64,000 nt of DNA, taken from positions 4,440,438 through 4,504,437 of the forward strand of contig JARUPZ010000021.1 of assembly GCA_031213475.1 (NCBI GenBank), given 5' to 3'. This DNA is from Nereocystis luetkeana (Eukaryota > Sar > Phaeophyceae > Laminariales > Laminariaceae). How positions within the stretch are numbered: position 1 is the first letter of the stretch; each line of letters begins with the position of its first letter. This document shows positions 3,733 to 63,869 of the stretch, piece by piece. The notes beneath the pieces are model-generated. The model was not told the origin of the DNA, ran no database searches, and saw nothing but the letters and a program-made list of their open reading frames with translations. The translations under genes and the position numbers were made by a program.

Positions 3733-6700
3733 ATGACGTTGGCGCGTATATTCGACCCCTATGCGATGGCCCTGAGCTTCCTCGTAGGCGGCGTGGGGTT
3801 CGGCATGACATTCTTCTTCAACACCAACGTCCAGGGCTGGGGAATGCACGAGATCGGCTATCCTGCTATGGCGATGGTGAGTTGACGTAAAGCTAACGCC
3901 AACCCGCCGGAAGAGAGAAGGGGTCATGCACGAGGAGAGGGTACCTTCAACTCTCATCGCGATCACGTTCTTGGCTGACATAAGAAGCACTCACAACTAA
4001 TAAGCTGCCAGGTACCAGGTGTTGGTAGAAGCAAACATAAGCGGCGTCTCCTTCCTCTCTCTTTGAGAGCACGTACATACACATTCAGCAAAATCAGCGG
4101 TGGATCCCGAGAGAACAGTATTTATGTACCCGTGTACCTGGTACCTGGTACAAGGTGCCCCTTCGACGCGGCATGACTCAAGGCTGATGGTAGTCAACTA
4201 CCTGGTACCTGGTACGTTCGTAATAATATGATTGTATACGAGGCGGAAGGAGCGTTGAATAGTGCATGGAGATATGTTGATATAGACTGCTGTGTACGTA
4301 CTCGTACGAAGATGCTTCGAGTTTATCGGAAATTGTATAGCCGAACCAGAGGACGTGATGTTGATGTTAATGTTGAAAGTTGTAAAAGCTTACGGCAGCA
4401 GCGACATCGATGTACAGCAGTACTATTCATACCATGGTACGTATTAATAAAGTACTATTGACACGTATTTATAGTACCCAGCGTACCCGTGCATTCGGCT
4501 GCGATATTGTCTGGAGGCAATCCTTCAGGCTGTGGTATGCTCGTGGGGCGTTTCCGAGGGGGTGTGTGTGAGCTCGTTCCCGAAACCGTAGAATGTGCAT
4601 GATATGCTGTCGAGGGTGTCGTGCAATGTGCTCAACGATTTCCTGTCGGACTTGTCCGTGCAGCTCTGGGTTTCCCAAAACACGCCGTGGTATTGTTCTC
4701 AAGAGAACAGGCCCCGTCTCCAACTTCCGTCGATGTTGTTCCGGCCGTCGTCAGGGTTACAGTATGCGCCGGCGGTGGTGTGATCCTGCCCGGAGAGAAA
4801 AACTGCGTGTCTTGCATGCGCGGCATCCCCGCTAACACGCCCCGCTAACACAGTTAGTGTGTCTTTCACTGAACAGCGAGCCGAACGGTGAAAGACACGC
4901 GGTTCAATGCAAGACACGCTGTGTTAGCGCGGCTGCCGCACGCGCAAAACACGCAGTTTTTTTTTTTTCCGGGCAGGATCACACCACCACGGCTGCCGCG
5001 GATGCCGGATGAGCAGCTTCCAAACGTTTACAGGCGACCAGTTCGCTTGTTCACTTTCGTGACTTGGTCCGGGCTCGACTCGAAGCGGTTGCAGATTTTG
5101 CTCCTGTCAAAGTTTCCCCCTATCCTCCTTCCTTTGGGTCCTGGCGGTCGCCAGACCAGCCGTTTCGAAAGCGTTGAGCTGAGTCAGGGGTTCCGCCAGC
5201 ACTTGATTCGCTCACAGGTAGACCCGCCTTCCGTTTGCCTGCAGGCGTTGTTGCCACGGGCTGCGAGGTTTCCGAGCCGGCGGAGGCCGCGTTCGCGAGC
5301 ACAGCAAATCCACCAGCAATCGCAGAGGCGTCTTTCTGGACAGAAATATCAGCAATAGCGATTGCCGTACGAGTAGAGCTTCTTGAAGGGAACACTATCT
5401 CAACCCCCCCCCCGGAAATTAAATCAACTCATTGAAGCTGTCGTCCATATGCAAGTCCGCCTCACAAGCGGTTCTTAGTAGGATGCAGCTCACCCTTCAT
5501 GCGACTCGCCGGACACCTCACGGCGCTTCGCGCTTGGTGCAAGCAATGTCTGCCTGGTCGGTGAAAACCCGACATGCTCCGTCCCGGCATTGTAGGGATG
5601 CGAGGGTCTATGGTCATACGACTACGGCCATGCATGAGATCGAGTACATCTCTCCTATCGAGTACACCCCCCCCCTCCCCCCCACCCCTCCCTGCATTCG
5701 CCTCCGCTCCGGGAACTCCCAGATATATGTCTACGCTCGAAACGCGCGGTTTCTCGAGACCGACGATAAGTTGAACGAAGAGCTTCTTGAAGGAAACACT
5801 GCCACGACCGCCACCGCCGATGGTGCTGACGGAAAGGATCAGAAGCTGCCGGCTCCTCCTACTAACGCTCCCGGGCTGGTTCTCGTCGCTGGGGGGCCAC
5901 TGAAGGCGCCAGCCGAGGGGTCGCTGTCGGTGGTCTTCTTTTTCGCGACGTGGTGCGCCAACAGCAAGAAGTGCTTGCCGTCTATCTTGTCGATGGCGGC
6001 GAGGTATCAGGATGAAGGTGGGACGGGTATGGGGGGAGGGGAGAGGGGCGAGGGGGGCGGCAGAGCAGAGGGAGGGGATGAAGGGGTGGTAGGGGGGGGT
6101 TGCTGAGAGGGAGGTGGGGGGGGGGGGGGGGGGTAGGTGGTGGATGTGAGGGACGCGGGAGCTTCTTTTCATTTTGCGCGCCGTAGGATGTGCAGCCGAC
6201 CGCACTCTCGTTGAGAAAGAAGGGCGGACAAATTGCAAACAGAACGGAAAGGTGTCGTTGTTCTGTTCATAACACGAGGTTCCCTCTTCGATAAGCGCTG
6301 TGTAGCGCTGGAGGGGAGGGAGGGGTATTTAAGAGAGTGCGCCCAGGGTGACCAACCTCGGAGAGACGCCCTGCGGCAATCGCTGACGGCGACTGTCCAA
6401 CGACTACGTTCAGCTAGGGGCGTGTCAGATATTACGTTTTGTGTCAGGTTATCTACGTGTGTCGGACCTCATCGGTGCAGACCGCACCGCATTTGGATCA
6501 GGTTGCACCGCATACTTTGTGTATCATATCGATTCAGATATTTACGAGTACCAGTATACAGTAGTTCTTGATTGGTATCAACGTCAGTTATTTGTGCGTG
6601 TTTTGAAACTGGGACGTGCTGCGTCTGCGTGCTTTCCTTGCGTGCAACTGCTACGGAGCTCTACCGTGGCGGCTCTGTTGCATTGACAGAGGACGAACGT

Positions 6701-10786: not shown

Positions 10787-11861
10787 TCACGATTGGGGCG
10801 CTTCCCACACCATCACCACGTTGTCCCCTCGAATGAGCAGCTGCTTCAAATACCTCTCCCGCCTCACCGACTTGAACTCCCCCCGCCAAGGCCCTCTAGC
10901 CCGAGACCTTCGCCCCCCCGGCCTTTTCTCTTGTCCGACCGCCCCCGCTTCCCCCGTTTCGTGCACGTCTTCCCCTTCTTGAGGTGCTCCTACCGGAACG
11001 CTAGTATTAGGGTTCCCACTGCTTTTCACGTCCTCGCCGGCTGCTTGCTCGCCGGTAGCTGTACCGGTGTCATCGACCTTGCTGCCACTATCGTCAGTAG
11101 CACTGCTTTCGGGCTCTTTTTCGCCTGAATCAGGAGCTGCGATGATTTTGTCCCCGGTAGTGACGGTTCCAAAGCAAACCTCACCACTTTTCTTAGCAAC
11201 GTCGCCGCTGCTGCTGCTGATGCTCCCCTCATCTACGGAAGGCATGTTTTCCCCCCCAGGGTCTGACTCATCTCTTCCCGCTCTCCCTCCCTCTACCGAT
11301 ACCTTGCGGGCAACCTTTTCTTGGCTCTCCTCCTCTCTCTCTACCCCTCCCCTGGTATTTCGGACAACGTTTTCGTGACCCGTCTCTTTTCCTCCCGAAG
11401 TTGTTTGGGCCTCGTCAACTACCTCACCCTCCTCTATTTCCTCTCGGGCGCTTCCACTATCGCTAGACAGGTCCATGCAAGACCCCCCCCCCCCCTCTCC
11501 CTCCCCCTCCCTGGACCCCAAGCTAACAGTCCTAACATCTGCTCGGGGTTGGTTGCCGAAGCCGTCGCCGGTCGCCCCGATCTCTACGAGGGTCCAGGTC
11601 GAAGCTGCAGCCCCTACCCCCCCCCCGTCCATGCCATCCAACCTTGCGTTGGTGGCAGCACCCCCGGCACCCCCAGTTTCGGAAATTCCAGCAGTTTTTC
11701 CGTCAGGCGTGATTTTAGCGCCAGCCCCCTGAACGCTCTCCGATAGTGGCTTCGGCTCGCGGGCGGGAACCAGGACGGTGTACTCTTCTCTTACGTCCGC
11801 GAGTAGCAGGTTCATGTGCTTGTCGAAGGCTCGGATCAAGCCTGTGCAGGTACCGCGAACG
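10787..11861 (-). CDS. LSm11-like exon 4: end of Sm1, insert, Sm2, stop
   Basis: Begins after the acceptor GATAG at 11862, completing a Ser codon (AG|C). Residues 1-32 finish Sm1. About 300 residues of acidic Glu/Gly/Ser/Thr-rich, apparently disordered sequence follow. A basic RRSRARGPWRGEFK stretch and the Sm2 helix-strand come last. The stop is TGA at 10789-10787. Sequence of this frame upstream of 11861 is intron (a CACCCACC microsatellite) and is not coding. Confidence 0.88.
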
Positions 11862-14800
11862 CTATCAATACGTGGTGAGGTGAGAGGATGCGTGGGTAGG
11901 TGGGTGCGTGGGTAGGTGGGTGAGTGGTGGGTGGGTGGGTGGGTGGGGTACGTAGACCTAGCGCGAAGAGTGTAAGCATCGCAGCAAAAATATGGCAGAA
12001 ACATAAGATAATAGGCGGCTTAGCTCCTGTATGGGAGTGCGTTTTGTTGGAACAGAGGTTGGTTGCAGACTGGGGGCGGTGGGAGGGGGGCTGGGGGGGG
12101 TTGGAGAGGAGGGGGGGGGGGTGGAGGCCATCCACCCCTAACTATGACGGTGCTGCTGAAGGAGCTCCCCGATGAAACCGCGAAGCGTCCCACGTGAACA
12201 GCCAACGAACAATGCGTATTTTTTCACACTCAATACATCACCTTTCTTGGTGATTCGCTCTCGTTCGACTGGTAGTCCCGTTTCATAGTAGCTATCCCAC
12301 TTGACACTGGCCAACCACGGCTCTCGTTAGTATCGTTCCCTCGCGTACTGGTACTACCGCGGTGCACCTATTGTTTTCTGCTTTGTTTGTTTTCTTCCGT
12401 CGAGACTCATTTTGTCAAGTTTTGTAAGTCTATTTTGCGACAACGGGCGAGATTTTCAGGAAATGTGCTAATGTGTGAACATCATCGTCATCAAACATTG
12501 TCGTCATCATCATCACACAACAAAGGACAGCACGCGAATACACTTCGTGCGGGTGCAACTTCTCCACACACTCGACACCTCGCCTTTGTTAGGGGACATA
12601 AAACATATTAAGTACAACAAAGTTTTTACTGCACTGCGGCGACTCTCTACGACAGCACGGCACTACTGACTTCAAAGAAGAAAGGAAGGCGGCACAGCTA
12701 CCGTTATCAGCGCCTCACGGTGGGAAACCCGGCGCATCAACCACACCCTGCCTGCCGCGTACGAGAGGGGGTAAACAAAAAAAACGAAAACATGTGTTCA
12801 AAACGCAGACCAAACCACAACTATAATGTCAGCAAGCATGACGTCTAAAGAGGAAGGGTGAGGTTGGTATTTAGCTACTTCATGTGTACTCTGGATATAC
12901 CCGGAAATCTACCCGGGCTTGACCAACTAAACGAGGCCTGGTACCCGGGTACCCTAAATTGTAACGTATATCCTGCTAAAAGCAAAACACTTGGAACGTA
13001 TAGCGAGAGGTGGTTGGAGATGCCAGTTGCCCCTCCTGCGAGTCGGCGTACATATGCTGTCTGGAATCTAAAATCCCGCCGAATCTATGTCTATACTCTC
13101 CTTCGTACCTACAAAATCTTCACGCCTTTCGAACTGCATTCTCTTGTGTTTGGCAACAAAAAAAAATGGAACAAGAATAGTTTTCAAAGAAGCAACAGGG
13201 TTGAACCGTTCAGAACTGTACGAGCTCGCCTTTTGGGGACAAGCTATGCCTTGTAATGAGATTATATATATTTTTGCGAAAGTGAAAACGCTACGTCTGT
13301 AGTAGGCTCTAAGCGCTCTCCTCCAAACCTCTCAAAGATATCTCAAAGGAAATATCAGAAGCCTCGAACAAACGTCGTCAAAGATCTTTAAACTATCCTG
13401 CAAAAAAACAATTCCATTATCTCAAATGGTCTCAAAGAGGTCTTGGAAACATCTCACCTGTTTACCCGCCGGATCATGACGCTCGCCCTCCTCTTCTCTT
13501 CGTGCAGGCGGTAGAGTAAGCTGTACGGTCCGGGGCCAGCATACTCGCGCATTATTCGCTGCACGGGCGTGCCCCCCTGCTCCTTCGACCGGCCTGGAGT
13601 ATCGTCCAATTGGGAGGGGGAGGGGGTACTCGATATCATGCATGACCGTAGTTGTACGACCATAGACCCTCGCCTCCCTACAATACCGGGAAGGAGCACA
13701 TCGGTTTTCACCGACCAGGCAGACATTGCTTGCAAGGGGCGGGTAATCATATTGCGCATGGCCGTAGTCGTGTGTCTATAGACCCTCGCATCCCCGGGCC
13801 AGGGCTCGGCTTACGTGTGCCTCAATATTTTTGTCATGGGAGGTGAATGCCGTATTCCTCTAGAAAGATTCACTGAGGATCAGCACGCTGACGCAAATAA
13901 TCGGCGATGCACTACAGCAAGCAGGGTGCCTCTTCCGACTCTTCGCGTCATAAGCTCTTGATCTCGTCTTACCACCGTCCTACCTTATAGACAAGGGGCC
14001 TCGTGACGCAGCACGTATTGATGGGGGGGGGGAGAGGAAGGAGGAAGAGGTCTACCGACGGTACCGATAGATAAAGCGTAAAAGAACAACAACAGCATTC
14101 ACGTCCCGTCGGTGGGCGTGTTGGGGCAAGGGGAGAGAGGAACGCCACTGCTGACGGTGAGGGTCCGATAGGCCGCAACAGCGGCAGCAGCATCAGCAGG
14201 AGTCACCCCGCAACACGCCTTCCTCCGCTACTTCAAGAACAAAAAAGCGTGACAAAACGAAAGCACACCTTTACCATACGTCTTCGCCGGCATGCTGGCC
14301 AACTCAGCTCCTCGCCGCGACACAGCCTTCGCTTTCTCCTCTACCTGCAGCTCGATCGCAGAGCTCACGGGTCCGTAGTGCCCCACAACGGAACCCCCAG
14401 CCCCTGCCTTCGGCATGCCCGGAGAAACGTCGGGCTGAGTTTCAACAGCACTGCTCTGATGCATAGTTTCACCTCCGCTGCTAGCCTTTCCAGTGCGGGC
14501 CACGTCGCAGAAGGGGTTATTGACGCCGCCGCCGCCGGGGGCCGGCTCGGCCGCTTTAGCGCCGCCGGCCTCGAGACCACCAGCAGCGTTATCGCTACCG
14601 CTACCGCTAACGCCACCGCTACCCGCGGTGGACATGGCGATGCGTCCCACCGTAGCCACGACCCCGACGGCTTGTCCCGATGAAGACAAGCTAGCGGCGG
14701 TGCTTCCAACCTCTGGTGTCACACTTTCTGCCGGCCGTGCTTCTGTCGCTCCAGGCTCAGACACAGGCGCAGAAGACGCGGGTTCAGCCGCGGGTTCAGT

Positions 14801-17219: not shown

Positions 17220-17344
17220 CTGCCAGCCGTGCGTGCGGTTGGTGCGTGGGGGGTGGGGGGGGGGGGGGGGGGCGTGCAGCTTGACACCGTGCGTGGGTTT
17301 CGCGGTCGAAAAGTTAAAAAAAAACGGTAACGACATCGTTGCGG

Positions 17345-17745
17345 GGGAGGGGGGGGGGGGGGGGTTGTACTCATTATCATGCATGGCTGTAGTTAATTGA
17401 CCATAGACCCTTGCATCCCTACGATGCCGGGACGGAGCACGCCTGGTTTTCCCAGACCAGGCAGGCATTGCTTGCACCAAGCGCGAAGCGCCGTGAGGTG
17501 TTGAGCGAGTCGCATGACGGGTGAACTTCATCCTGCTAAACACCGCTTGCGAGGCGGACTTTCTTGCAATATGGATGACAGCGGCGAAATACCGCATTTT
17601 TTTTCTGGTGTGGTCACTTCCAGAGACGGCAAGGGGGTTACTACGTAATTGCCTCGTGGGTGCCTCATCTTGGACACTCCGTACGTGATACAACAGTTCC
17701 CCTTGTGCGGAGCAAAGGTTCTCTACCCGCACAGATGATCTAATT
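17345..17745 (-). mobile_element. Repeat family A copy, sense to the LSm11-like gene
   Basis: Longer copy including the upstream part (TCCGCACAAGG, GAGGCACCCACGAGGCA, GGTGTGGTCACTTCC on the opposite strand) also seen at 61860-62170 and 62380-62760. It ends in a C-run at about 17347-17363, roughly 125 nt before LSm11-like exon 1. Confidence 0.85.
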
Positions 17746-17767
17746 CGACCACCAGCCGCGGCGACCG

Positions 17768-17850
17768 GGGGGGGGTACTCATTGGCTACTTGCCTTAGTC
17801 CTCTGACCATCCACCACGCATCCCTTTCGAGACGGAGGGGGGTGGGGGGA
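17768..17850. repeat. Short G-run-bracketed element (copy 1 of 3)
   Basis: GTACTCATT...GCCTTAGTC...GACC.T..ACCACGCATCCC followed by TTTCGAGACGG, with G-runs at both ends. The same unit occurs at 28217-28327 and 50624-50722. It resembles the terminal 70 nt of family A. Confidence 0.8.
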
Positions 17851-18934: not shown

Positions 18935-18965
<31 letters not shown>

Positions 18966-18984
18966 CCGTACGACGCTACTTTGT
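17851..18984. other. Intergenic region with dispersed repeats, no gene seen
   Basis: Two copies of a repeat with CCCGGGCTGC and CCGAGGCGCAAC (about 17955-18070 and 18370-18490; third copy about 47380-47480). Also fragments of the 'ATCAGAACnCACGATGG' repeat at 18560-18700 and an (AT)n run at 18935-18965. I expected the LSm11-like promoter here but see no clear motif. Confidence 0.55.
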
Positions 18985-20997: not shown

Positions 20998-21000
20998 TAG

Positions 21001-24617: not shown

Positions 24618-25612
24618 GTGTGTGGTGGTGTGTACCTACAGCGCGCGACAGCAGTCAAGAGTTTCTTATTTTGGCCAAGGGCCGCGGCTTACTGTGCTGT
24701 CAGCTTTGAGCATAGGATCTTGCACGCTACCAGTAGAAAGTACGCCAGCTAAGAATTTCAGGCAGGCATTTTGTTTCATTTAGTAATTTGCAGCTACAGG
24801 TAACGCATGTGTGTCCTACCAAGAACACCATCACCCTAAATCCTACCAGGTAGCAGGTACTGGTATATAATAGCCTTCCAGAGCCTGCGCTCAACGTCGA
24901 CACCACAATAAGCCGCGAGCCTTGAGCCTCAACAGGAGATTGCTGCCTGCTGTGGCGTGTGTGACCGTTCTTTCTACCCGACGACATCAGTACACCCAGT
25001 GTCCGTCCTGATTCCTTATTCCAGAGATATACCTGGTACTCCTTCTGTGGTACTGTTTTGTATGAACACATATTTTCAGCCTGAAATTCTTGACGCCTAT
25101 ACTCTGAAGTCTGAACACGAGCCGCGTACTAACTGTGGTGGTAGAAACGTCGACGCGTGCTGCAATGAGAGTTCTACAGTACTGCTGTCGCGCCTCTTGG
25201 AAAAATATGTATGACTGACTGGGCTTCACAGCCGAGGAAATAATACAGTACAGTAGTACCTTCCAAGATCGTTGGGACCTCGTGTATGATGGCATACAAT
25301 CACTGCTGTCTCTCGTTGAACACCTTCGACTAAAACTGTACTATTCATACAACAGTACTACCTGTAGGCCGTAGGGGGAGCGTTTGCCGATTTTCTTGAG
25401 GTCAGGTTTCGGTGAGATGCAGAGCTACTGTTCGTAGCTCCTTGAGTGTGAGGAAGGAGCCGCAGAAAGATAAGGAACACCCCTTTGTACCGTAGCATTT
25501 GCATCTTCGATCAATTGCCATGTATGTGGTGGACGGTGGGCGGCTGATGTGTCCACATTTCTTTGATAGCGTATTAAGAACATCGTCAGCCGCCGGCGTA
25601 AAACAACTACTG

Positions 25613-25690
25613 TAGTACTGTACTGTACTGTACTGTACTGCAGTAGTACTGTACTGTATGTACTACTGTACTGTACTGTAGTGTACTGTA
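25613..25690. repeat. (TACTG)n microsatellite
   Basis: Interrupted TACTG/CAGTA units, upstream of the first TOG exon. It is self-complementary in parts (CAGTAGTACTG). Confidence 0.85.
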
Positions 25691-25889
25691 CCTGGTAAGT
25701 ATATACGTATACCGATATAGCTCAAGGACTTTCAGCCGCTCGCCCGCAACGCCGTTACGACCGCGAATATAGCTACTGGTTAATCATTCACATTACTATA
25801 CTGTACCAAACACGATCCGTATACTTACGGGCGCACTCGGCTGGACCGGACCGGACCGGATTGTCACCAACGCTTTTGCTGGAGCGAAG

Positions 25890-40466: not shown

Positions 40467-40508
<42 letters not shown>

Positions 40509-52500: not shown

Positions 52501-55500
52501 GTCTGCGTGAATTCAGCGGGTATACCGTAAAAAGAGCGTGGAAATTGCACAGGAGTGCAATCGTTTTCTCGGCGCTCTTTTTTGGTTCAACGTTGTGGGT
52601 TTCTAATACCTGGTATCAAACATTGATAGTACTTTCAGAAGGCTCTCGACCTGATCTTTCCGAAAACGCCTCCTTTGTTCGGTGTTGGAAACCTCCCCGT
52701 TCTGGAAAAATCGAGTGCTGAAGACCCCTGTGCGAACTCAACGCACGTTACCTCTTTACGGTATACCCTCCTCCTCTTTCTCCTCCCGCTCTCTTGGGGA
52801 ACTCACTGGCTAGCCGTCTAGACTCTTCAAGGGTTTCCAACCTAAATAACGCCCTAGCTCCCTCCCCCCTACACCGGATGATATTTACTCATTGAAGCTG
52901 TCTACCATATGCAAGTCCGCCTCACTAGCGGTTCTTAGTAGGATGCAGCTCACCCTTCATGCGACTTGCCGGACATCTCACGGCGCTTCGCGCTTTGTGC
53001 AAGCAATGTCTGCCTGGTCGGTGAAAACCTGACATGCTCCGTCCCGGTATTGTAGGGATGCGAGGGTCTATAGTCATACGACTACGGCCATGCATGATAT
53101 CGAGTACATCTCTTTTATCAAGTACACCCCTCCCCTCCCCCCCGCGGCCCCGAATGAGGGCTGCCGCCTTACGATGTTGAGCTGAACCCGACGATGTTGC
53201 CTGGCCCGCACTTTCCCTGAGTTGTCTTCCCGCCGACCGTATTCCGACATGATTGTTCAAGACTTTTTTAACAGAAGCAGGTGTGGAGGACGATGGCGGC
53301 ACGCACGGGATGGGGGAGGAACGACCGCCGATATCACCCTCAAAGCTTAGCCCGATCAGGGGCGTGAATATGGTAAGCAGGGGGGAGGGGAGGCTGCTCG
53401 TACGTGTGGGGGACTGGTTTCCAACATCTACAGGCCGTTGACTCGTTCGTTGGTCGAATCTTCCATTTTCAGGGGAGGCGCTCATACATTGTGGTCGATG
53501 CCAGTTTGTTGGGCGACGGTTTCGAGATGTTCGCAGAGAACACGCAGGGAAGGCTCGAGCGCACCCAGCACTTTACAAAGACTGCCCTTTACTCGTTTTA
53601 TGTATAGGTTAGTTTAGTAGTGTCTATTAATAGTTTAGTTTAGTGCAGTTTAGTTTTTCTTAATTTGTTTTACAGTAGTTTAGTGCAGTTTATTTCAGTT
53701 GACTTTATATTGGTTCAGTTCAGTTTAGTGTATTGAATTTTGTTTCGCTCCGCCACATTTGATACCATTTAGTGCAGTTTAGTTTTTCTGAATTTGTTTT
53801 ACAGTAGTTTAGTGCAGTTTAGTTCAGTTGACTTTATATTGGTTCAGTTCAGTTTAGTGTATTGAATTTTGTTTCGCTCCGCCACATTTGATACCATTTT
53901 TGTTCAACACTTTTTATTTTCCAGCTCAACCCGTGGGAAGGTTTACCCTCCGCCATAAGGCCTTCTGAGCAAACCGAGGTCACAGGTGTCATCCCTTCTC
54001 CCCCCCCGGCATACATCTACGTGCTTTCTTTTGAATCGCGCAGAGGGTTCGGCATTCCCACTGCTCGTCGCTGTTTTCGTCGCGTAGGAAACTCACTCTC
54101 TCGACGCGCCACATGGCGTTTCGTCTCCTGAAAAAATAAACTCTCGCAAACGCAAGCAATGAAAATGGTTAAGTTTAGCCACCAGTACTCTCTCATACGG
54201 TGTGTCCAATACCAGCATGGTCCCCTCTGTAGTGCCTGTATGTATGCGCCAGGCAACAACACCGGCACTGTATCGGCAACCAGCACTATACACTCCCCAC
54301 ACTGCCGCACTGGCTACTCCCATACGTTCTACGCGATTTTCACAGGCCCAAGGTTTAGCGGGTAGCTGGAACTGCTCAACCGGCGCTATAGACAGACGGA
54401 CTCCACTGTGTACATTTGCGGTTGTGGAGGCAGTACATGTTACTTTAGTTCAAGCGTTACCCGTGTCCCAAATGTTTTGTTCTCCCCCTTCCGAATTTCA
54501 GGCGGGGATATCCTCGGCAACCGGACGCCGGCAAGAACGGCGTCAAAAAGTGGAAAGGGCGAGCGAGGTGCGAGCAAAGACGCTGTTTTTTCCAACTTGA
54601 TTGGTTCAGAAAACGAAGCGGGGGAAACGAACGGAGGGGAAGCGCCACCGCGTTGTAACCCTAGGGATTGGTAACAATTCCCTGTTTTACTGTTGAAGGC
54701 GTGGAAAATGATAAAATCATCATCAGAAGGGATAATCTACTGCTACAGTGGTAGCCTAGCCAGCAGATCTTACCATTCTTCGACTATCCCCTCCTACTGC
54801 TGGTCAAATGGTGATGTTTCGTGGCTTTTCATTGGTCTACACCAAAACACGCACTAGCACACAAACACCCACACATATCTGCACCCATCTATCGCTCGGC
54901 ACCCTGATCCCCACACCGACCTGATCCCACCCGGACCTGAGCCCTCAAAACTTAACCTCGGTATATAGTTAACCGCCGGCAGGACCCACCAAGGTACCCT
55001 GATTCCACGCCGACCGAAGTAGAGGGTACGCCACAGTGATTCGAGGGTCGGCCACAGCCAGCGAACGGTTTTGTCGAATTAGTGGGGTCCCCACTTTAAG
55101 ACCATCGATCCGGTTTAAGAATCGGGAAATAAAAACCAAGGTAGATAGGCTTGCGACGAAAAATTATCTACTTGGATTTAGTATGAGATACTGTTTTCCG
55201 ACAATGAAGTAAAAAGACTTAAACGGAGATAAGACCACGTAAATCTCCTTAAGGTCGCGGGGGTGGTCTTCAAGTGGGTACACCACTGTGAGTGGTAAGG
55301 TGCCCTCACCCGGTCAGCGCTGACTGAGTAATACCTGGTACCTGGTATGTTGTTAGTAGGCTGTCCCTTCTAGTCCACACATCGTATATAGCGTGGCAAG
55401 GGAGAGAGGGGCAGTATCGCCGAGCCGAGTTAGTCAAGAAGCAGTGGGTCTGGCGACAATTGGTTGGCTTCTTTTTTCATCACTCGAACCAAGCAGCAGA

Positions 55501-58500: not shown

Positions 58501-61500
58501 AGGACGCGCGAATACCTGGCCCAGCGAGCGATCGCCGTCTAGATGCAAGCTGCGGCCCTGTCTGTTCGCGTATTCTACCAGTCTGCCAGCACCGTTCTGT
58601 GCGGTACCCACTTGGTACTCCCACGAGGCGATCGACCCAACATTGCCAGCTGGCGCTGTCGCAGTGAGCTGCGTACTACTTACTGATGCGTACCCTGCCA
58701 AGTAATATAAACTTTAACGCATGATTCTCTCTACGACAACAGACTGCAGATTATTATCATATCGGTTCCCGGTCCCTCCTAATCTTTTCCTTTTTTCCGA
58801 CCACACGAGTCGCATGAAGAGAGGTTCATACCTTGGACAGATCATCACCTAGATTATTCGTACCCACAGTAGCTCCTCAACTGCCGTTGTGAGAGGGTAT
58901 GCAGGATCCGAAGAGTACAGCTCCACCCCAGGAAACCTGTGCTACTGTACATCCTGCAGATTAGTGTACGGCTTCCACCCGACGACATGAGCTAGATCGT
59001 ACAGATCATACAGATCGTACATATCAATGGCATATCTATCTATCTGCCCTGAATGATCTAGATCATCAAAATAACCGATTTTCTAGAGCATGATCTCTCC
59101 GAGGTGCGAAGCCCTTCTGACCCCCTCCCCAAACACTCCCATCCCAACATGGATTTTTGTTTTGAAAACGTACAACGTTTAATACAGGACATCCGACCAT
59201 CGCCCAATCCGACGCAAGAGCTACAGCGGGCGATGCTGTCGTTGCCTCGGGACACCTGGCCGGAAATATTTCACACCCTGAACTCGGTCAGGAGGTTGGC
59301 GGTGCACCATGCGCCTCTACTGGGCTCGCAGTCTCACCTGCATGCCCTCGTCAGGGACGTGCTGGGTCACGCCGAAAACCTCCGATCGCAGGTATTGGGT
59401 TGTTTGCGAAGAATTATGTTGGGTTGAGTTTCTTGCAGTCTGTTTCCTACGAAAATAGCAATCCCAACCCACGAAAAACTAATTTATGTGGGGAAAAGAT
59501 GGAACTACAACAATGGCGTTCTTTAACCCAAGTTTTCTTGGGTTGGGTCACTCTGTTGGTTGTGGTCAGGAAACGGAGCAACTTATTGTTCACCTGCTTA
59601 ACCAATCGACTATTCATTTTTTGTCGCTTTCTAATGTTTTTATTACCCAACCAGATTGGAGTATCGCAAACACCCTATTATACGCTTGTATCCATATATA
59701 TGTATGCTCTCTTTTGAAGTAAAATCCGGCTTGTTTTCTGTTTATGAGCTAAAAGAAAATGTGGCAAATAACGCCCTTCTCGCGCGCTCTTGAAGTGAAG
59801 CTCCCCGCATATTGCATATTTTTCTTCTTACCCAGGTGGCAAATAACGCCCTTCTCTCTAAAAGCGAAGCTCCCCGAACGTTTTTTTCTGGAACAACCAG
59901 GTGGCAAAGAACGCCCTACTCACGCTAGCCGACCTCTGGCGAAGCTTGGGGGGAGCCTTGGACCCTGAGCTCCCGATGGTGTGCCCTGTGCTGATAAAAA
60001 AGTTAGCCGACAAGGTGGAGTTTCTGGCGGAGGCAGCGCGCGAGGTGAGGATTTTTTTCAACCCGCTTTGAGAGCGGCGGTGACAGTTTTTTTGTGGGGA
60101 CGAAAAGGTTGGTATTCGCAGTGCGGGATTACGTTTGCAGCGGTTGATTTTTCATTCTTGTTTTCCATCTTCACTTTTACTTCCCGGATCCACTCGTAGG
60201 AGGTTTTGCCCTTAGCGATCTTCTGGACCAACAGTGGTCACAAGTCTCGTCCCTTCTCCCCCCCGGTAGGTGCCTTCATTTGTATCGCGCACAAGGTTCA
60301 GCATTTCCACTGCTCGACGATTATCGTCGAATGTTGCCAACTTACGCTCTCGCGCTTTCCGCTAGTCGATTTCTATGCAAGAAAAAGTCCCTACGAGTAT
60401 CCACTCGGTGAGACTCGAACCCTCGAAATTGATCTTGGTAGGCACGCGGACCACCTACCACGCCACCGGGGACGCATGTATAAGCCGTAGAGGGGAACAG
60501 TGCCTACGTGTGGGTGGAATACATATGCTTGTGACTTGAGGTGCCTACGTACGACGACAACAATTACTGCGGAAACCAAGCATGATATCCCTACGGAACC
60601 CTTTGAGACATTCACAGAAGATTCCGAAATAGGCGAAACAAGCAGCTTAGACGGCTCTGGGGGTGGGGGGTGTTACCCAAATTACAACGTGAGAAGATAT
60701 GTGTACTATGCGATACTTGGGCGCACAGCCGTAATATCGTACTTGTGCCGCTGCGCTCTTGCTATGTATGACGAGGGAACATCGGTACCCAATCAGATCA
60801 ATTCAGGAGTGGTAGTACCCAATCAGATCAATTTCAGGAGTGGAGGAGCCAAAAACTGAAAAGTGATCTGGGGAGTGATGAACTCCGGATGTTTAGAAAA
60901 AAGCAGCTCGATCACTCACTTCTGAAGCCTGCTTTTTAAGGGTTCCAGCGACAACTGAAAGGGCACAGAAAAACAACAGCTGGGACAGGAGAAGGCCTCA
61001 TCCAATCCAATGCTCTCAATGAACGATCGGCGAGCAGAGTGAAATAACATATACTGCCGGCACATCTACAGTAATCAATCAATTGCGTATTGTAAGCATA
61101 GGGGAGTATACGGTCTTGGGGGCCATCGTGGGTTCTGACTGCTCCAAGCCCCCCTAGGGCAAACACAGGCTGCACTTTCGTTACAGGTCACCAAGCCTCG
61201 TATTAAATAGGACCTACGGCAACACACAAAGCCCTACCTGGTATATATTTCGCTAGTTTTACTAGTACGGGGGACCATACTTAATAGGACCAAATATTGT
61301 TAGTAAAAATGGTTAAATATATAGGATTTTATGTATGCCATAGGTCCTATTAACTAGGGTCCCCCGTAATAACAATATTTGGTCCTACTCACTATGCCCC
61401 CCCGTAATACAACAATACTTGTAGTGTACTTCGTAGAAATACAGTGGTGTGCCCGTTTTGACCCTTTTAGGATCGCAGTCCCGTTTTGGGGGCAAAGTAC

Positions 61501-63869
61501 TTGGAATTTGAGTGGTTTGTTCCCTAAACGGGACTGCATTAAAAGGGGTGAGTGGGGTTGCGAAGGGAGGTGCTGGGTTGGCTAATTCCTCAATTGAAGC
61601 ACGCCTCCAGTCGCAAGTTGCTGGGCCTCAAAACAACCCCCCCCCCTCTCCCCATATAGGTTGGGTTGGCGTCGGTCGGTTCGCGACGACGCTTTAAAAC
61701 GCGCCTCTCACTGCGTGAGCTAGACGGCCAGGGTACCGTTTTTTTTGTTTTGTGTTTTTGGCGGATACCACGGATGGCGCTCGAGTTAGATCTTTTTTGT
61801 GCGGGGAGAACCTTTACTCCGCACAAGGTGGATGATCGTATCACGTAGTGTGTATATGGTGAGGCACCCACGAGGCAGTTACATAGTAAATCCATTGCTG
61901 TCTCTGGCAGTGGCCACACCAGAAAAATGAATCAATTCATTGATGCTGTCATCCATATGCTAGAAAATCCACCTCTGAAGCGGTTTTTAGTAAGATGCAG
62001 CTCACCCTTCATGCGACTCGCCCAACACTGCACGGGGCTTCGCGCTTGGTGCAAGCAATGTCTGTCTGTTCGGTGAAAACCCGACGTGCTCCGTCCCGAC
62101 ATTGTAGGGATGCGAGGGTCTATGGTCATACGACTACGGCCATGCATGATAGTGAGTACACCCCTCCCCACGGTATTGTGGCTCAGCACGCAAAATGCTC
62201 AGCACAACCCGTCTACCCGCCATGTGTATAGGTTGGGTTGGCGTCGGCTAGCGACGACGCTGAAAAACACGTATCTCTGCGTGAACTAGACAACCCGGGT
62301 ACCGTTTCGTTTTGCTTAGTTTTTTTTGTGCTGTCACTCACCGCGGCTGGCGGCCGAGCTTTGGATCATTTGTGCGGGGTGGAGAACCTTAACTCCGCAC
62401 AAGGAGAATGGTCGTATCACGTAGTGTATATGGTGAGGCACCCACGCGGCAGTTACGTAGTACACCCATTCCTGTCTCTGGAGGTAACCACACCAAGAAA
62501 ACGAATCAATTCGTTCGAAGCTGTCATCCATATGCAAGAAAAAGTCACAGGTGGTGGTTTTTGGTAGGATGCAAGTCCATCCTTCACGCGATTCGCCGAA
62601 CACCTCATGGCGCTTCACGCTTGTGCAAAGCGGTCAATGTCGGCCTGGTCGGTGAAAACCCGACGTGCTCCATCCCGGCATTGCAGGGATGCTAGGATGC
62701 GAGGGTCTATGATGATACGACTACGGATATGCACGGTATGAGGTACGACTACACCCCCGCCTTGCCGTCGGATTACTCAGCACGCTAAACACTCAGGACA
62801 CTACCCCCCCCCCCCCTCCCCCCGACGGATTTCGCATTTTCAGTGCGTGGACGAAGTCGTCGCAGCCGCCACCGACTCGCGGGCGCTGTCAGCCTTCCTC
62901 TCGTGTGGGAACCACCGCAACCCGGCGGTCCGCGCTAAATCCGCTCTGGCGACTCTCCTGTGCGTGCGCCGACGGTGTGCTGCCGCCGCCGTGACTGCGA
63001 AGTCGTCGGCGTCAGCTCGTAGGGGTGACGATTGGGGTGGGGGGGGAGGAGGAGACGGTGGTGGTGCGAGGAAAGGGAACAGGGGGGGTGTGGGGGTGGG
63101 TGCTAGGGAAATGGACAGGGTGCTGTCTACGCTGCCGAGGTTCTTGCAGGCAAGTGGTGTGTGCGATTGTTCTATGTACGAAGTGGTGGTGGAGCGTTTA
63201 TTCATTTTTTATTTTCCCAGCAGAGAGGGTCAAGGGCCAATGTCGGTTGACGGTCTAATTGGTAATAGGTGTGACCCGTCAAGGTCTCTTAGTACACTGT
63301 TTCTAGTGTGCGGAGTTCCTTGACGGCTGTCCGTCATCCCAGTCAAAGCCTCTATACATACCAGGTACTAGTTTTAGCGTGAATGTTTCCTTGACGGCTG
63401 TCCGTCAAGTCCGACAAGGGTTGACGGCTGTCTGTCAAGAGAAAACATCGGTGTCAACCTGCGTTTCTTGTCAAGAGGTGTCGTAAAATTAGGAACCACG
63501 ACACCGGTATCGCCAATAGCCGTAACAAACGTATGCTCACACCTGGTATATGTCACTATCTATGTATTTTCAAGTTACACCTACCAAACCTACCCGACGT
63601 GCCCTGCCCCAGCATTGCAGGGGTGTGACGGCCTATGGACATATGAGTACGCCCTCGCCCATTTACCGCCGTAGGACGGCTTTTCAATGTCCTGGCACCT
63701 GTTCGTCGTGGCCAAACGGTTTTTGCCGCGTAACCTGTTTGCCTCGTAGAAGGGGAACCGATTCGTAACCGTTTTCGCCGTGCGCTTTCCTGCTTTCGTT
63801 TTTTTGTAGGACGGGAACCAGGAAACGCGGCAGCACGCTAAGGCTCTCGTGGCCCTGCTCCTTGAATCG
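25890..63869 (+). CDS. TOG-array microtubule protein, TOGARAM/crescerin-like (18 exons placed, 3' end beyond window)
   Basis: Exons: 25890-26164, 27852-28103, 29844-29951, 32590-32729, 34144-35806, 38955-39470, 41010-41113, 43128-43269, 44558-46107, 48857-49033, 51585-51789, 53289-53372, 54502-54567, 56348-56644, 59188-59391, 59901-60044, 62844-63149, 63810-63869. All consecutive phases fit, giving about 2,097 codons. TOG domains are HEAT-repeat arrays that bind tubulin dimers. Order here: TOG1 (exons 1-5 start), Ser/Gly/Pro linker, TOG2 (end of exon 5 to 7), long disordered linker, TOG3 (exons 15-18 and on). TOG3 landmarks W..IF..LNSVRRLAVHH, HAENLRSQ, NALLTLADLW, LDPEL and NPAVRAKSAL match crescerin/TOGARAM better than CLASP. 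TOG1-TOG2-linker-TOG3-(TOG4) is also the TOGARAM layout, where the protein regulates ciliary microtubules. CLASP remains the alternative. Exons 12-13 are the weakest. Confidence 0.75.
26850..27005. repeat. Telomere-like degenerate repeat array
   Basis: About three roughly 50-bp units combining CCCTAACCCTAA-type runs with AAGCCAATCAGAGCAA. The CCCTAA match is to plant/algal-type telomere repeats. The position is intronic, so this is interstitial or a satellite. Confidence 0.8.
27852..28103 (+). CDS. TOG-gene exon: TOG1 HEAT repeats
   Basis: 84 codons in phase 0 at both ends, acceptor TGTGCAG and donor GTGCGT. Contains VALECLSVLKEAASWLSRTL and VPSVVDCFSKECLRGPARG, paired amphipathic helices as in TOG domains. 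Confidence 0.75.
28217..28327. repeat. Short G-run-bracketed element (copy 2 of 3)
   Basis: G-run, then GTACTCATTTGTTGCTTGCC...TTTCGAGACGGAGCACCGTC and a second G-run. It is antisense to the TOG gene, relative to family A orientation. Confidence 0.85.
28947..28972. repeat. Poly-C run of about 25 nt
   Basis: Pure cytosine homopolymer in an intron; a likely assembly or sequencing length uncertainty. Confidence 0.95.
29155..29430. repeat. Degenerate 15-bp satellite (AGGGGTTGCAATT type)
   Basis: About 18 diverged units of 'TAGGGGTTGCAAT', with G/A interchange. It is intronic, ending about 410 bp before the exon at 29844. Confidence 0.9.
29844..29951 (+). CDS. TOG-gene exon: TOG1 HEAT repeat
   Basis: 36 codons, phase 0/0, acceptor GAGCAG and donor GTGAGT. 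Reads VPDVAAILIDQLVHHGM...ETVRLWSTLVSSHLL, a helix-turn-helix HEAT unit. Confidence 0.78.
31672..31890 (-). mobile_element. Repeat family A copy, antisense to its host gene
   Basis: On the minus strand: GGATGCAGCTCACCC..., AGCTTCGCGCTTGGTGCA, CGGTATTGTAGGGATGCGAGG, CTACGGCCATGTATGA. This is the only long copy here in reverse orientation to the surrounding gene. Its end lacks a long C-run. Confidence 0.8.
32590..32729 (+). CDS. TOG-gene exon: TOG1 C-terminal HEAT repeat
   Basis: Acceptor GGCAAG (the only AG after the in-frame stop at 32566) and donor GTGAGT, phase 0/2. Reads EYGSLLKGLVGRV, then VVDAAVEALGRMY, matching the 'L..LLGD....VR..A...L..IY' helix pair near the end of TOG domains. Confidence 0.8.
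33330..33720. repeat. Degenerate repeats with GGCGAAATAAGGCATGCC
   Basis: Three diverged units (about 33357, 33413, 33656) with ACGGCTAG..., GGGTGGCGAA and AAGGCATGCC; a fourth fragment is near 28705. Intronic. Confidence 0.6.
34144..35806 (+). CDS. TOG-gene exon: end of TOG1, disordered linker, start of TOG2
   Basis: The acceptor ACGCAG supplies the third base of an Ala codon from the previous exon (GC|G), giving AFQAGESCLGSAYRQLLEHYG, the final TOG1 helices. About 450 residues of Ser/Gly/Pro/Thr-rich sequence follow, with few predicted helices. The last 90 residues (SDELLHTLAEVDNL, RVRAMEEVKWLVSGMGW, LTEDADFKI) form the first TOG2 HEAT repeats. Donor GTGAGA, phase 0. The ORF continues past the donor into intron to 36010 and begins before the acceptor at 34001; neither part is coding. 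Confidence 0.8.
36776..37020. repeat. Tandem array, four copies of about 65-70 bp
   Basis: Units share CCAACCGTGCCACnCGCATG, TTCCGAG, GACGCGGTTCAA and CGCCTCAT. Intronic. Confidence 0.9.
38216..38495. repeat. Tandem array, three copies of about 88 bp
   Basis: Units share GGTTCTGATTACnGGGTGGGC, ATATGTAGT.AGAATCAGAAC and CACGATGnACCCAAAA. Single diverged copies occur at 18560-18700, 50300-50360 and 61090-61150. Confidence 0.9.
38955..39470 (+). CDS. TOG-gene exon: TOG2 middle, with Gly/Lys-rich insert
   Basis: Phase 0/0; acceptor GATCAG, donor GTGAGT. Directly continues '...ADFKI' as VAARHHAMVVLSALVSAAG, then TAWRAREGSLKLVIAGLLL, the TOG signature 'W..REG.L.L'. A polar insert with KKPKAGIS and QQQPNPQQ follows, then EVRKLVCDVGALLTDERPE. 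Strong evidence for a TOG domain. Confidence 0.85.
39814..39966. mobile_element. GGGTC-rich inverted-repeat element (family F), copy 1
   Basis: Ends CAGGGGCTCTCACGGG and CCCGTGAACAGCCCTG are inverted. The interior is CCCGACC/GGGTCGG-rich. Other copies are at 43304-43516 and 51045-51204. Confidence 0.8.
40250..40560. repeat. GTT/GCT trinucleotide tract
   Basis: About 310 bp of imperfect GTT and CTGTTG/CTG repeats, producing artificial long Leu/Val/Cys or Asn/Ser/Thr frames. Intronic. Confidence 0.9.
41010..41113 (+). CDS. TOG-gene exon: TOG2 C-terminal HEAT repeat
   Basis: The acceptor ACTAG gives VRLTAMETLAVVA, completing '...TDERPE|VRLTAM', the classic HEAT 'D..PEVR..A...L'. Donor AG|GTTTGA, phase 2. 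A shorter start at the internal ATG would lose this fit. Confidence 0.75.
42087..42230. repeat. Two-copy tandem repeat, about 78 bp
   Basis: TATAGAGCGACGCTTGGCTG and GTGTCGAGTCGAnACTCAGCG, repeated almost exactly. Intronic. Confidence 0.9.
42612..42866. repeat. Three-copy tandem repeat, about 84 bp
   Basis: Units share TATTAAnnCnTAAACGTnCCTT, TCCTAAAAGTAG and GATACAAGG. Intronic. Confidence 0.88.
43128..43269 (+). CDS. TOG-gene exon: linker
   Basis: Acceptor GGCCAG in phase 2 completes an Arg codon (AG|A). Reads RLQDSVSPLPHLGPDGIVDL and ends AAVTVVGQE, donor GTACGA, phase 0. The phase fit on both sides is the main support. Confidence 0.6.
43304..43516. mobile_element. GGGTC-rich inverted-repeat element (family F), copy 2
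   Basis: Starts CCGGGCTCTTCACGAGG and ends CTCGTAAACAGCCCTG. Holds (GGGTC)4 and its complement (GACCT)n as inner arms. Begins 35 nt after the donor at 43270. Confidence 0.85.
44558..46107 (+). CDS. TOG-gene exon: long disordered linker
   Basis: 517 codons from acceptor CAACAG (phase 0) to donor GTAATG (phase 2). Begins SEHHHQKSLPASPPRHTGG. It is rich in Gly, Ser, Arg and Glu, with poly-Gly tracts at 45270-45420 and 45730-45780. No fold is expected. The opposite strand holds a 440-codon frame of Thr/Ala runs, the mirror of the GGT repeats. The plus strand is chosen because of the splice fit and charge mix. Confidence 0.7.
48857..49033 (+). CDS. TOG-gene exon: linker
   Basis: Acceptor ATCAG in phase 2 (AG|G, Arg), donor GTGAGG in phase 2. 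Ala/Gly-rich, ending PTTPVPVGR. Preceded by a pyrimidine-rich stretch. An overlapping frame ending RQFL-stop is a shadow. Confidence 0.6.
49066..49300 (+). repeat. Dispersed repeat family C, copy 1
   Basis: CAGCTCAACC..., GGCCTTCTGGACAA, GGTCACAGGTGTCGTCCC, CAGCATTTCC. Other copies at 53913-54075 and 60176-60345, same orientation. Confidence 0.75.
50624..50722. repeat. Short G-run-bracketed element (copy 3 of 3)
   Basis: About 24 G, GTACTCATTTGTTGGTTGCC...TTTCGAGACG, about 17 G. Antisense to the TOG gene relative to family A. Confidence 0.88.
51045..51204. mobile_element. GGGTC-rich inverted-repeat element (family F), copy 3
   Basis: Starts CAGGGCTCTTCACGGATG, ends GGTAAACAGCGCTG, with inner (GGTCGGGTCGG) and (CCCGACCCGACC) arms. 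Confidence 0.85.
51585..51789 (+). CDS. TOG-gene exon: linker
   Basis: Acceptor CTGTCAG in phase 2, donor AAG|GTGAGG in phase 0. Reads VIRSTVSACAPSRG, a Pro-rich piece, then PLPLSLKRGGDAHERQG. The phase agrees with both neighbours. Confidence 0.65.
52890..53140 (+). mobile_element. Repeat family A copy, sense to the TOG gene
   Basis: Nearly identical to 5429-5692, including the truncated left end (ATTGAAGCTGTC) and the CGAGTACATCTC...AAGTACACCCC end. Lies about 150 nt before the exon at 53289. Confidence 0.88.
53289..53372 (+). CDS. TOG-gene exon: linker (acceptor uncertain)
   Basis: Frame DDGGTHGMGEERPPISPSKL...GVNM before donor GTAAGC. The phase-0 acceptor would be GTGGAG at 53288. The stronger-looking GAAGCAG at 53280 is out of phase, so an undetected exon or another border is possible. 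Confidence 0.45.
53607..53905. repeat. TTAGTGCAGTTTAG repeats; two-copy 129-bp tandem
   Basis: Low-complexity TTTAGT-rich region containing two nearly identical units that start AGTGCAGTTTAGTTTTTCT (53642 and 53771) and end CCGCCACATTTGATACCATTT. Confidence 0.9.
53913..54075 (+). repeat. Dispersed repeat family C, copy 2
   Basis: CCAGCTCAACCCGTGG, AAGGCCTTCTGAGCAAACCG, GGTCACAGGTGTCATCCC. Confidence 0.7.
54502..54567 (+). CDS. TOG-gene exon: short linker helix
   Basis: 22 codons, phase 0/0, AGISSATGRRQERRQKVERA, acceptor AATTTCAG with a good pyrimidine tract, donor GTGCGA. Another frame is open too; the phase and helical charge pattern favour this one. Confidence 0.45.
55731..55837. mobile_element. 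107-bp MITE (family B), copy 2
   Basis: ATTACGGGGGACCACAGTAAATAGGACC at the left (given as landmark parts ATTACGGGGGACCA and AATAGGACC) and GGTCCTATTTACTATGGTCCCTCGTAAT landmarks (GGTCCTATTT, CTCGTAAT) at the right. Same length as the other two copies. Confidence 0.9.
56348..56644 (+). CDS. TOG-gene exon: linker leading into TOG3
   Basis: Phase 0/0; donor GTGCGA after ...SFDYLTIE. Disordered Gly/Ser/Thr-rich, with KSPPPPASGARR and VVVPPSPGSSS. The next exon continues DIRPSPNP, a natural entry to a TOG domain. The 5' border (ACCAAG at 56347) is inferred from phase. Confidence 0.65.
57219..57665 (-). other. Antisense open frame of unknown status in a TOG-gene intron
   Basis: 149 codons ending GLYSMLNMVVEG, with WLDPENYYHYLFVDGCRG and AEWWVEREITP. 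It looks more protein-like than most frames here. No family recognised, no neighbouring exon found. It could be a decayed mobile-element gene or chance. Confidence 0.25.
59188..59391 (+). CDS. TOG-gene exon: TOG3 first HEAT repeats
   Basis: 68 codons, phase 0/0, acceptor AATACAG, donor GTATTG. Reads DIRPSPNPTQELQRAM, WPEIFHTLNSVRRLAVHHAP and LGHAENLRSQ. This matches the crescerin/TOGARAM TOG pattern 'W......L..(I/V)R.L...H' plus 'NLRS'. The earlier ATG at 59149 is upstream of the acceptor and not needed. Confidence 0.88.
59759..59900 (+). pseudogene. Two partial duplications of the following exon's start
   Basis: GTGGCAAATAACGCCCTTCT occurs at about 59762 and again at 59836 (with CCCAG before it). 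Both resemble the true exon start GTGGCAAAGAACGCCCTACT at 59901. Each copy decays within about 40 nt into GAAGCTCCCCG. Confidence 0.8.
59901..60044 (+). CDS. TOG-gene exon: TOG3 middle
   Basis: 48 codons, phase 0/0. VAKNALLTLADLWRSLGGAL and LDPELPMVCPVLIKKLADKVEFL. The family counterpart is '..AA...L.DLF..L...(L/M)D.EL...V..LL.K', including the helix that packs before the next exon. Confidence 0.88.
60176..60345 (+). repeat. Dispersed repeat family C, copy 3
   Basis: GCGATCTTCTGGACCAACAG, GGTCACAAGTCTCGTCCC, GTTCAGCATTTCCACTGCTC. Confidence 0.7.
60400..60472 (-). ncRNA. tRNA-like sequence (A and B boxes), probably decayed or SINE-type
   Basis: On the minus strand TGGCGTGGTAGG fits the A box and GGTTCGAGTCT the B box, spaced 44 nt as in a tRNA, in a 73-nt unit. 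The acceptor stem pairs in only about 5 of 7 positions and the anticodon stem does not pair well. I do not call a functional tRNA. Confidence 0.35.
61264..61370. mobile_element. 107-bp MITE (family B), copy 3
   Basis: GTACGGGGGACCATACTTAA at the left, TTAACTAGGGTCCCCCGTAA at the right. Immediately downstream (61381-61409) is another right-end fragment, GGTCCTACTCACTATGCC plus CCCCCCGTAATA. Confidence 0.9.
61656..62770 (+). mobile_element. Two tandem full-length family A elements (572-bp period)
   Basis: Unit starts ATAGGTTGGGTTGGCGTCGG at 61656 and again at 62228. Both contain AACCTT.ACTCCGCACAAGG, GTATCACGTAGTGT, GTGAGGCACCCACG and the usual GGATGCAGCTCACCC-like 3' half. The second copy's C-rich end lies about 85 nt before the exon at 62844. 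Confidence 0.9.
62844..63149 (+). CDS. TOG-gene exon: TOG3 C-terminal half with Gly-rich insert
   Basis: 102 codons, phase 0/0, acceptor CATTTTCAG after a C-run. Reads CVDEVVAAATDSRALSAFLS and GNHRNPAVRAKSALATLL. A Gly/Arg/Ala-rich insert (about residues 45-85) follows, then EMDRVLSTLPRFLQ. Ends at CAG followed by GCAAGT, a GC donor. Reading through would give a non-homologous tail. Confidence 0.85.
63320..63438. repeat. Three copies of the hairpin TTGACGGCTGTCCGTCAA
   Basis: At about 63320-63336 (truncated), 63391-63408 and 63421-63438 (one mismatch). TTGACGG pairs with CCGTCAA around a CTGT loop. Located in the GC-AG intron. Confidence 0.9.
63810..63869 (+). CDS. TOG-gene exon: TOG3 last helix (last exon in window)
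   Basis: 20 codons, acceptor TTTTTGTAG, donor GTGAGA, phase 0/0. DGNQETRQHAKALVALLLES continues '...RFLQ' as the final HEAT helix ('D...EVR..A...L..L'). The gene continues off the right edge. Confidence 0.82.

What the first reader, a model, noticed from the sequence alone, without database searches (positions are those of the whole stretch)
5429..62770. Repeat family A sits just upstream of exon acceptors and may supply their pyrimidine tracts
Copies at 5429-5692, 13610-13800, 17345-17745, 52890-53140 and 62228-62770 lie in introns of three genes, all in the sense orientation. They end in a C-run about 15-150 nt before an acceptor (5722, 13594, about 17220, 53288, 62843). Only 31672-31890 is antisense, and it is about 700 nt from an exon. 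That bias is what an intron-creating ('introner'-like) or acceptor-donating element would leave; biased survival of insertions is an alternative.
Basis: partly seen in the sequence, partly recalled or inferred. Interest (0 to 1): 0.8.

Follow-up and report, generated by a model that had tools for sequence, protein, structure and literature searches.

The report
Jumping genes that target C-runs
The repeat is a short hitch-hiking retroelement that, together with a partner carrying reverse transcriptase, tends to insert into runs of C; because introns of this genome carry C-runs before their 3' ends and G-runs after their 5' ends, copies line up with splice sites without having to create the introns.

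Summary
Family A is a ~510-nt, variably 5'-truncated, SINE-like retroposon. Its last ~65 nt resemble the 3' end of a LINE with reverse transcriptase (RVT_1 E=2.8e-28); all 12 LINE 3' ends fetched show that tail and a C-rich run. A C-run lies just upstream of 37 of 61 truncated A copies (G-run 0 of 61; background 4.5%); one LINE-tail copy in the window is flanked by a perfect C14TGTCTGA duplication. Close neighbours run head to tail (25 same orientation, 2 opposite). Around 39 kinesin exons picked without regard to the element, copies are 5 sense:1 antisense upstream and 0:6 downstream; C/G-runs away from elements share that polarity (11 C:2 G; 3 C:12 G). Target choice explains this; intron creation or acceptor donation is not needed. 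Duplications with unique letters are weak statistically. No relatives or empty alleles were available.

The parts
5416..5692 (+). Family A copy, 5'-truncated (starts at about position 280 of the 520-nt copy), with C-rich tail; C10 run at 5404 on its 5' side
   Evidence: blastn; C-runs
13613..13794 (-). Family A, two partial pieces (13622-13734 and 13756-13794) with C-rich tail; sense in the Lsm11-like gene, 28 nt from the exon
17349..17761 (-). Family A copy with C-rich tail; its 5' end stands directly after the C-run of the LINE tail 17775-17837
17767..17837 (-). 3' tail of the partner LINE (5'-truncated copy) with C-rich sequence on both sides
28215..28326 (-). 3' tail of the partner LINE (28237-28304) between two perfect copies of C14TGTCTGA (21 nt): target-site duplication that contains the C-run
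31676..31880 (-). Family A copy, 5'-truncated; antisense to a HEAT-like exon 701 nt away; C-rich stretch on both sides
50624..50722 (-). 3' tail of the partner LINE (50647-50707) between two long C-runs
52887..53143 (+). Family A copy, 5'-truncated, C-rich on both sides; gene context not confirmed
61643..62167 (+).
62227..62750 (+). Near full-length family A copy in tandem with the previous one; weak C tail; a separate C-run (62804) lies before the exon at 62843
63592..63654 (+). Family A fragment, 78% identical over 63 nt
5722..6018 (+). Thioredoxin-like exon downstream of the first copy (weak Pfam match; boundaries by eye)
10830..17230 (-). Exons of the Lsm11-like gene (about 17230-16890, 13594-13478, 11890-10830; boundaries by eye)
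   Evidence: LSM domain; frames
59110..63000 (+). Exons at 59110-59391 and 62843-63000 of a gene that I take for TOG-like (recalled; no Pfam hit)

Best explanation
Family A is a non-autonomous, SINE-like retroposon (about 510 nt when full length) moved by a LINE whose 3' end it imitates. Both are copied by target-primed reverse transcription (inferred from the shared 3' end, frequent 5' truncation and duplications). The preferred target is a run of C: the RNA's 3' end ...GAGTAC(C)n would pair with the G-run primer at a nick (inferred), so the strand of the C-run fixes the orientation of the copy. The C-run is duplicated with a few neighbouring bases, and the tail is itself a target for the next copy, so elements chain head to tail. 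Introns of this genome have C-runs before 3' splice sites and G-runs after 5' splice sites, so insertions come out sense near acceptors and antisense near donors. The splice signals mostly came first; the elements follow them and may lengthen them.
For: Common 3' end, variable 5' end: 97 merged A matches in 39 fetched loci plus the window; of 89 with complete flanks 61 are truncated. Partner LINE: degenerate copy with RT motif ending in the same tail; 150 scored matches of 1314 candidates genome-wide; 12 of 12 chosen copies end in the tail plus a C-rich run, one of them (L097) interrupted; L092 ORF of 921 aa has RVT_1 E 2.8e-28 and matches human LINE-1 ORF2p at E about 1e-18. A tail and LINE tail 75% alike over 84 positions, E 1e-7. 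C-run >=6 within 60 nt upstream: truncated A 37 of 61, near full-length 21 of 28, truncated LINE tails 18 of 20; G-run 0 of 61, 1 of 28, 0 of 27; control windows 4.5% C, 4.7% G. Duplications of C-run plus neighbouring letters: window 28237, L026, L028, L012, L023. Chains: 25 same orientation vs 2 opposite within 100 nt, 17 of 25 spacers at least 60% C; 6 of 12 LINE C-tails are followed within 57 nt by another element in the same orientation. Polarity.
Against: Duplications with unique letters are not a clear statistical signal: score >=8 in 9 of 108 pairs against 4.6 expected from mispaired flanks. 24 of 61 truncated A copies have no C-run >=6 within 60 nt upstream. A carries its own C-rich tail (CCCACCCCTCC motif after 23 of 97 copies), and near full-length copies seem to begin with CCCCC(TATTTT), so only 5' flanks of truncated copies argue for a prior target. 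One kinesin copy is antisense 71 nt before an exon (L052) and one sense copy lies on a donor side (L019). No empty site was found. That A uses this LINE is inferred from the tails. The C-runs called element-free could be tails of decayed copies.
Confidence: 0.82

Rival explanations
1. Introner-like or acceptor-donating element: insertion into exons created the introns, the element supplying pyrimidine tract and acceptor.
For: Sense copies lie just before exons (17 of 29 with a downstream exon within 300 nt); the C tail is a plausible pyrimidine tract.
Against: Distances vary from 28 to 2866 nt; most copies truncated; upstream exons 146-3096 nt away; antisense mirror pattern at donors; only 12 elements in 78 flanks of 39 kinesin exons, so most of these intron ends have none within the 300-400 nt read.
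Confidence: 0.04
2. Insertion without target preference, with selection removing copies that harm splicing (antisense near acceptors, sense near donors).
For: Selection on intronic elements is reported in Ectocarpus (PMC12477816, passages); the observed pattern may be the tolerated one.
Against: Does not explain C-runs on the 5' side of truncated copies (37 of 61 and 18 of 20 against 4.5%), the chains (25:2; 6 of 12 LINE tails) or the C14TGTCTGA duplication.
Confidence: 0.1
3. Reverse cause: elements made the C- and G-runs at intron ends; the element-free runs are remnants of decayed tails.
For: Tails carry C-runs; 121 of 237 runs >=10 in the loci lie within 80 nt of a recognised element, although most of these loci were chosen for holding copies; tandem chains lengthen C-rich stretches.
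Against: In the perfect duplication at 28237 the target already held C14; C/G-runs more than 80 nt from any recognised element keep the polarity (16:8 vs 2:11; 11:2 vs 3:12); the last 100 nt of kinesin introns are C-rich in general (33% C, 21% G). Tails alone would not place themselves at intron ends.
Confidence: 0.15

Closest known systems
RTEX-N1_Ec32 of Ectocarpus (PMC12477816; passages seen)
   Same: About 600-bp non-autonomous element, most abundant family there (over 6000 copies), 3' end shared with autonomous RTE-X LINEs, origin of the 5' part unknown, authors consider it a possible SINE.
   Different: The passages seen report no C-run target, no chains and no splice-site polarity (the term C-rich occurs 0 times in the main text; supplements not seen).
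SINE/LINE pairs with a shared 3' tail (for example eel UnaSINE/UnaL2, ruminant Bov-tA/BovB; recalled)
   Same: Short element ending like an RT-encoding LINE; 5' truncation.
   Different: No Pol III promoter or tRNA origin found here; homopolymer C target.
Non-LTR elements specific to microsatellites or RNA genes (recalled)
   Same: Target sequence fixes the orientation; copies can pile up in one target.
   Different: The target here is a C homopolymer that coincides with intron ends; specificity is a preference, not strict.
Introners (PMC9860276; passages seen)
   Same: Many similar copies in introns, sense near acceptors.
   Different: Introners make up the intron and recruit or carry splice sites with short duplications; here the copies lie inside longer introns at variable distances and in both orientations.

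Membership tests
Introner | Element boundaries coincide with intron boundaries | tested here: not met
   Sense copies end 28-2866 nt before the next detected exon; previous exon 146-3096 nt away. Exon edges approximate.
Introner | Orthologues without the element lack the intron | not testable with these tools
   No related eukaryote genome held.
Introner | Consistent sense orientation in genes | tested here: not met
   31 sense:19 antisense; 6 of 12 elements at kinesin exons sit downstream and antisense.
SINE | Short, without coding capacity | tested here: inconclusive
   Near full-length copies about 510 nt; no domain search was made on A itself, so the non-coding part rests on length.
SINE | Pol III promoter or tRNA/5S/7SL origin | tested here: inconclusive
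   No Rfam match at gathering scores in the window, only chance-level ones over the two long copies, no tRNA by ARAGORN with bacterial settings.
SINE | 3' end shared with a LINE | tested here: met
   75% over 84 positions; 12 of 12 LINE ends carry the tail.
SINE | Target-site duplications | tested here: inconclusive
   Clear single cases (28237, L026, L028, L012, L023), weak overall: 9 of 108 against 4.6 expected.
LINE (partner element) | Reverse transcriptase of the non-LTR type | tested here: met
   RVT_1 E 2.8e-28; PDB matches 8c8j 'RNA-directed DNA polymerase', LINE-1 ORF2p and R2.
RTE-X clade | RT phylogeny within RTE-X | not tested
   No tree with reference RTs was built; suggested only by the Ectocarpus precedent.
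RTE-X clade | APE-type endonuclease | tested here: inconclusive
   L092 ORF shows only RVT_1; the copy may lack its 5' part.
Target-specific non-LTR element | Copies occur in one kind of target, in fixed orientation to it | tested here: met
   C-run vs G-run upstream: 37 vs 0 of 61 truncated A, 21 vs 1 of 28 near full-length; C-run at 18 of 20 truncated LINE tails. A preference, not exclusive: 24 of 61 truncated A lack such a run.

The most novel reading that the evidence does not exclude
A self-reinforcing niche: a LINE/SINE pair that reads the C-rich tract before 3' splice sites, and its G-rich mirror after 5' splice sites, as target. Each insertion leaves the C-run beside the splice site, duplicates it and adds a C tail, so that splice-site tracts and elements amplify each other along introns, and some acceptors by now depend on element-derived tails.
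Probability: 0.35. Interest if true: 0.8.

Novelty: new variant of a known kind. Interest (0 to 1): 0.55.

Why it matters
It shows how a retroelement can keep to introns and near splice sites without any contact with splicing: by using the homopolymer that splicing itself may maintain. It warns that 'sense and next to acceptors' is not evidence for intron creation unless the mirror position at donors is checked. It makes testable how far target preference, rather than selection, shapes element orientation in genes, and how such genomes come to have long introns with C- and G-rich ends.

Tried and rejected
Phage collection: no match. Rfam and ARAGORN: no RNA origin for A. The dominant RT family of the genome (150 scored of 4777 candidates) was considered as partner and rejected: the two copies whose 3' parts I read end in ACA or AC repeats. 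Non-C duplications were scored against mispaired flanks and gave only a weak excess. Empty sites: 117 joined flanks against all fetched sequence gave spans that I take for other chained elements, by their coordinates (3906 hits, those within the source locus not examined); the small contig C367 showed no allele elsewhere by its flanks. Pfam on L012 RT pieces: no RT hit. Pfam gave nothing for many short exons, so about half of the exon set rests on a codon score and on my recognition. Paper searches: brown alga + genome + SINE + polypyrimidine tract 0 papers; Ectocarpus + splice + polypyrimidine 0; non-LTR retrotransposon + target + poly-C + microsatellite 3, listing only; further listings. These cover an open-access library only, so I claim no more than that I did not find the C-run target described.

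Rows left out of counts: 8 of 97 A matches without full flanks; in the gene test 18 of 39 A-loci and 4 window genes were used, the others having low-complexity or unclear exons; I shortened one L028 exon by hand (2435-2700); copies near both or neither exon side were left out of the side counts; of 132 kinesin matches I chose 39 by hand (inside the domain, mostly single frame); a 40th region (L088, 80 bases) was my typing error and was dropped; L056 and L091 overlap by about 180 bases.

Full report
What is there. The window is a stretch of a 465-Mb genome in 1987 contigs (G000:C21:4440438-4504437); a brown alga is my inference from genome size, about 52% G+C, intron-rich genes and many small contigs with identical Cpn60 frames that look like plastid, not a test.

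Anatomy of family A. A search of the genome with one copy listed 43 matches from 40 scored of 109 candidates, and a longer query found 9207 first-look candidates, so the family is abundant; no exact count was possible. In 39 fetched loci and the window 97 merged matches share the 3' end ...CATGCATGATATCGAGTAC followed by C-rich sequence, 38 of them with an added ATCTCTCCTATCGAGTAC-like end, and differ at the 5' end. Near full-length copies are about 510 nt. No tRNA, 5S or other Rfam origin was found.

The partner. The short related tail proved to be the 3' end of a LINE. In L012 a degenerate copy with a reverse-transcriptase motif ends in it. A protein search with an open piece of that copy gave 150 scored matches of 1314 candidates. 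I fetched the 3' ends of 12 of them: 12 of 12 end in the tail and a C-rich run, interrupted in L097. In L092 the tail is the C-terminal end of a 921-aa reading frame with RVT_1 at E 2.8e-28 and PDB matches to LINE-1 ORF2p and R2. A and LINE tails are 75% alike over 84 positions (E 1e-7). This is the usual make-up of a SINE that borrows a LINE's machinery; that A uses this LINE is inferred.

The target. Copies lie in C-runs. Within 60 nt upstream of the 5' end a run of six or more C occurs in 37 of 61 truncated A copies, 21 of 28 near full-length ones and 18 of 20 truncated LINE tails, against 4.5% of 20,000 control windows; G-runs occur in 0 of 61, 1 of 28 and 0 of 27. The clearest insertion, at window 28237, has the same 21 letters (C14TGTCTGA) on both sides, so the C-run stood there before. 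Similar single cases are L026 (CCCAGCAT), L028 (CCCCTCCCCACCTT), L012 (C-run plus CGATAA) and L023. Over all 108 pairs tested the excess of duplications with non-C letters is weak (9 against 4.6 expected at score 8). Neighbours within 100 nt run in the same direction in 25 of 27 cases, 17 of these 25 with a spacer of at least 60% C, against 28:19 at 100-3000 nt; 6 of the 12 LINE tails are followed within 57 nt by another element in the same direction. Tails therefore serve as targets.

Splice sites. I located exons with a codon score trained on window exons and tested 30 ranges with Pfam: Nop52, HMA, Sec7, ABC transporter, threonine dehydratase, Met-tRNA synthetase and Rab3GAP were found above the cut-offs; a DEAD helicase, WD40, UvrD, HEAT and others only below. 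In 18 of the 39 A-loci and 4 window genes there are 31 sense and 19 antisense elements (P=0.12), no different from C-runs away from elements (44:24; Fisher P=0.85). Position tells more. Within 300 nt of one exon side only, sense elements are 16 acceptor-side to 1 donor-side, antisense 0 to 11 (Fisher P=6e-7); runs of at least eight C away from elements are 16:8 when sense and 2:11 when antisense (P=0.005). Counting each intron end once, the better-supported genes give acceptors 7 sense:0 and donors 0:6 antisense (P=0.0006), the others 9:0 and 1:2 (P=0.045). These loci were chosen because they hold copies, the 1.25-kb loci can only show near exons, and the better-supported set still includes three genes below Pfam's cut-off (L028, L044, window thioredoxin).

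Independent sample. Kinesin exons were found without reference to the element (132 matches); 39 flanks were usable. Elements: upstream 5 sense and 1 antisense, downstream 0 sense and 6 antisense (P=0.015). Runs of at least eight away from elements: upstream 11 C and 2 G, downstream 3 C and 12 G (P=0.002). The last 100 nt before exons hold 33% C and 21% G, the first 100 nt after exons 33% G and 21% C. The introns themselves are polar, and the elements follow.

How it works, and what is inferred. Shown: shared tail, truncation, C-runs on both sides, orientation fixed by the C-run, chains, mirror polarity. Since the duplication keeps a C-run next to the acceptor, such insertions should be mild for splicing; whether tails serve as pyrimidine tracts is untested.

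Against known systems. The nearest known element is RTEX-N1_Ec32 of Ectocarpus (PMC12477816, passages): similar size, abundance and LINE-derived 3' end. The passages seen mention no C-run target. Introners (PMC9860276, passages) are introns made by the element, which is not met here. I file it as a SINE-like element of a LINE/SINE pair with a target preference, clade not tested.

Noticed in passing
5379-5400 and 5779-5800: A 22-nt stretch of the thioredoxin-like exon (AGAGCTTCTTGAAGG.AACACT, one mismatch) recurs about 400 nt upstream, on the other side of the A copy; both can be read ELLEGNT. Perhaps a duplicated exon end (seen).
   Followed up: partly
9287-9409, 55730-55838, 61249-61409; L037: Repeat with inverted ends (CGGGGGACCATAGTTAATAGGACC-like), looks like a small DNA transposon; one copy seems inserted inside an A copy in L037.
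   Followed up: no
1783-1826 and 24964-25007; L022/L050, L051: Short copies of what looks like the 3' end of another, very abundant LINE family (open frames of about 1250 aa) whose two copies read end in ACA or AC repeats.
   Followed up: partly
29107-29455: 13-bp minisatellite of about 21 copies; further tandem repeats at 36780-37018 (65 bp), 38233-38445 and 42631-42866 (94 bp), 53639-53899 (129 bp, 98% alike).
   Followed up: no
G000 contigs C53 to C481: 70 listed matches to Cpn60 on small contigs with the same score and frame length: probably redundant organelle contigs in the assembly.
   Followed up: no
G000:C12 and C435; C5 and C572: Pairs of places with identical scores and frame lengths, perhaps haplotype copies that could give empty alleles.
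   Followed up: no
39 kinesin exon flanks, L052-L087 and L089-L091: G-runs after 5' splice sites and C-runs before 3' splice sites appear as a feature of introns in this genome.
   Followed up: yes
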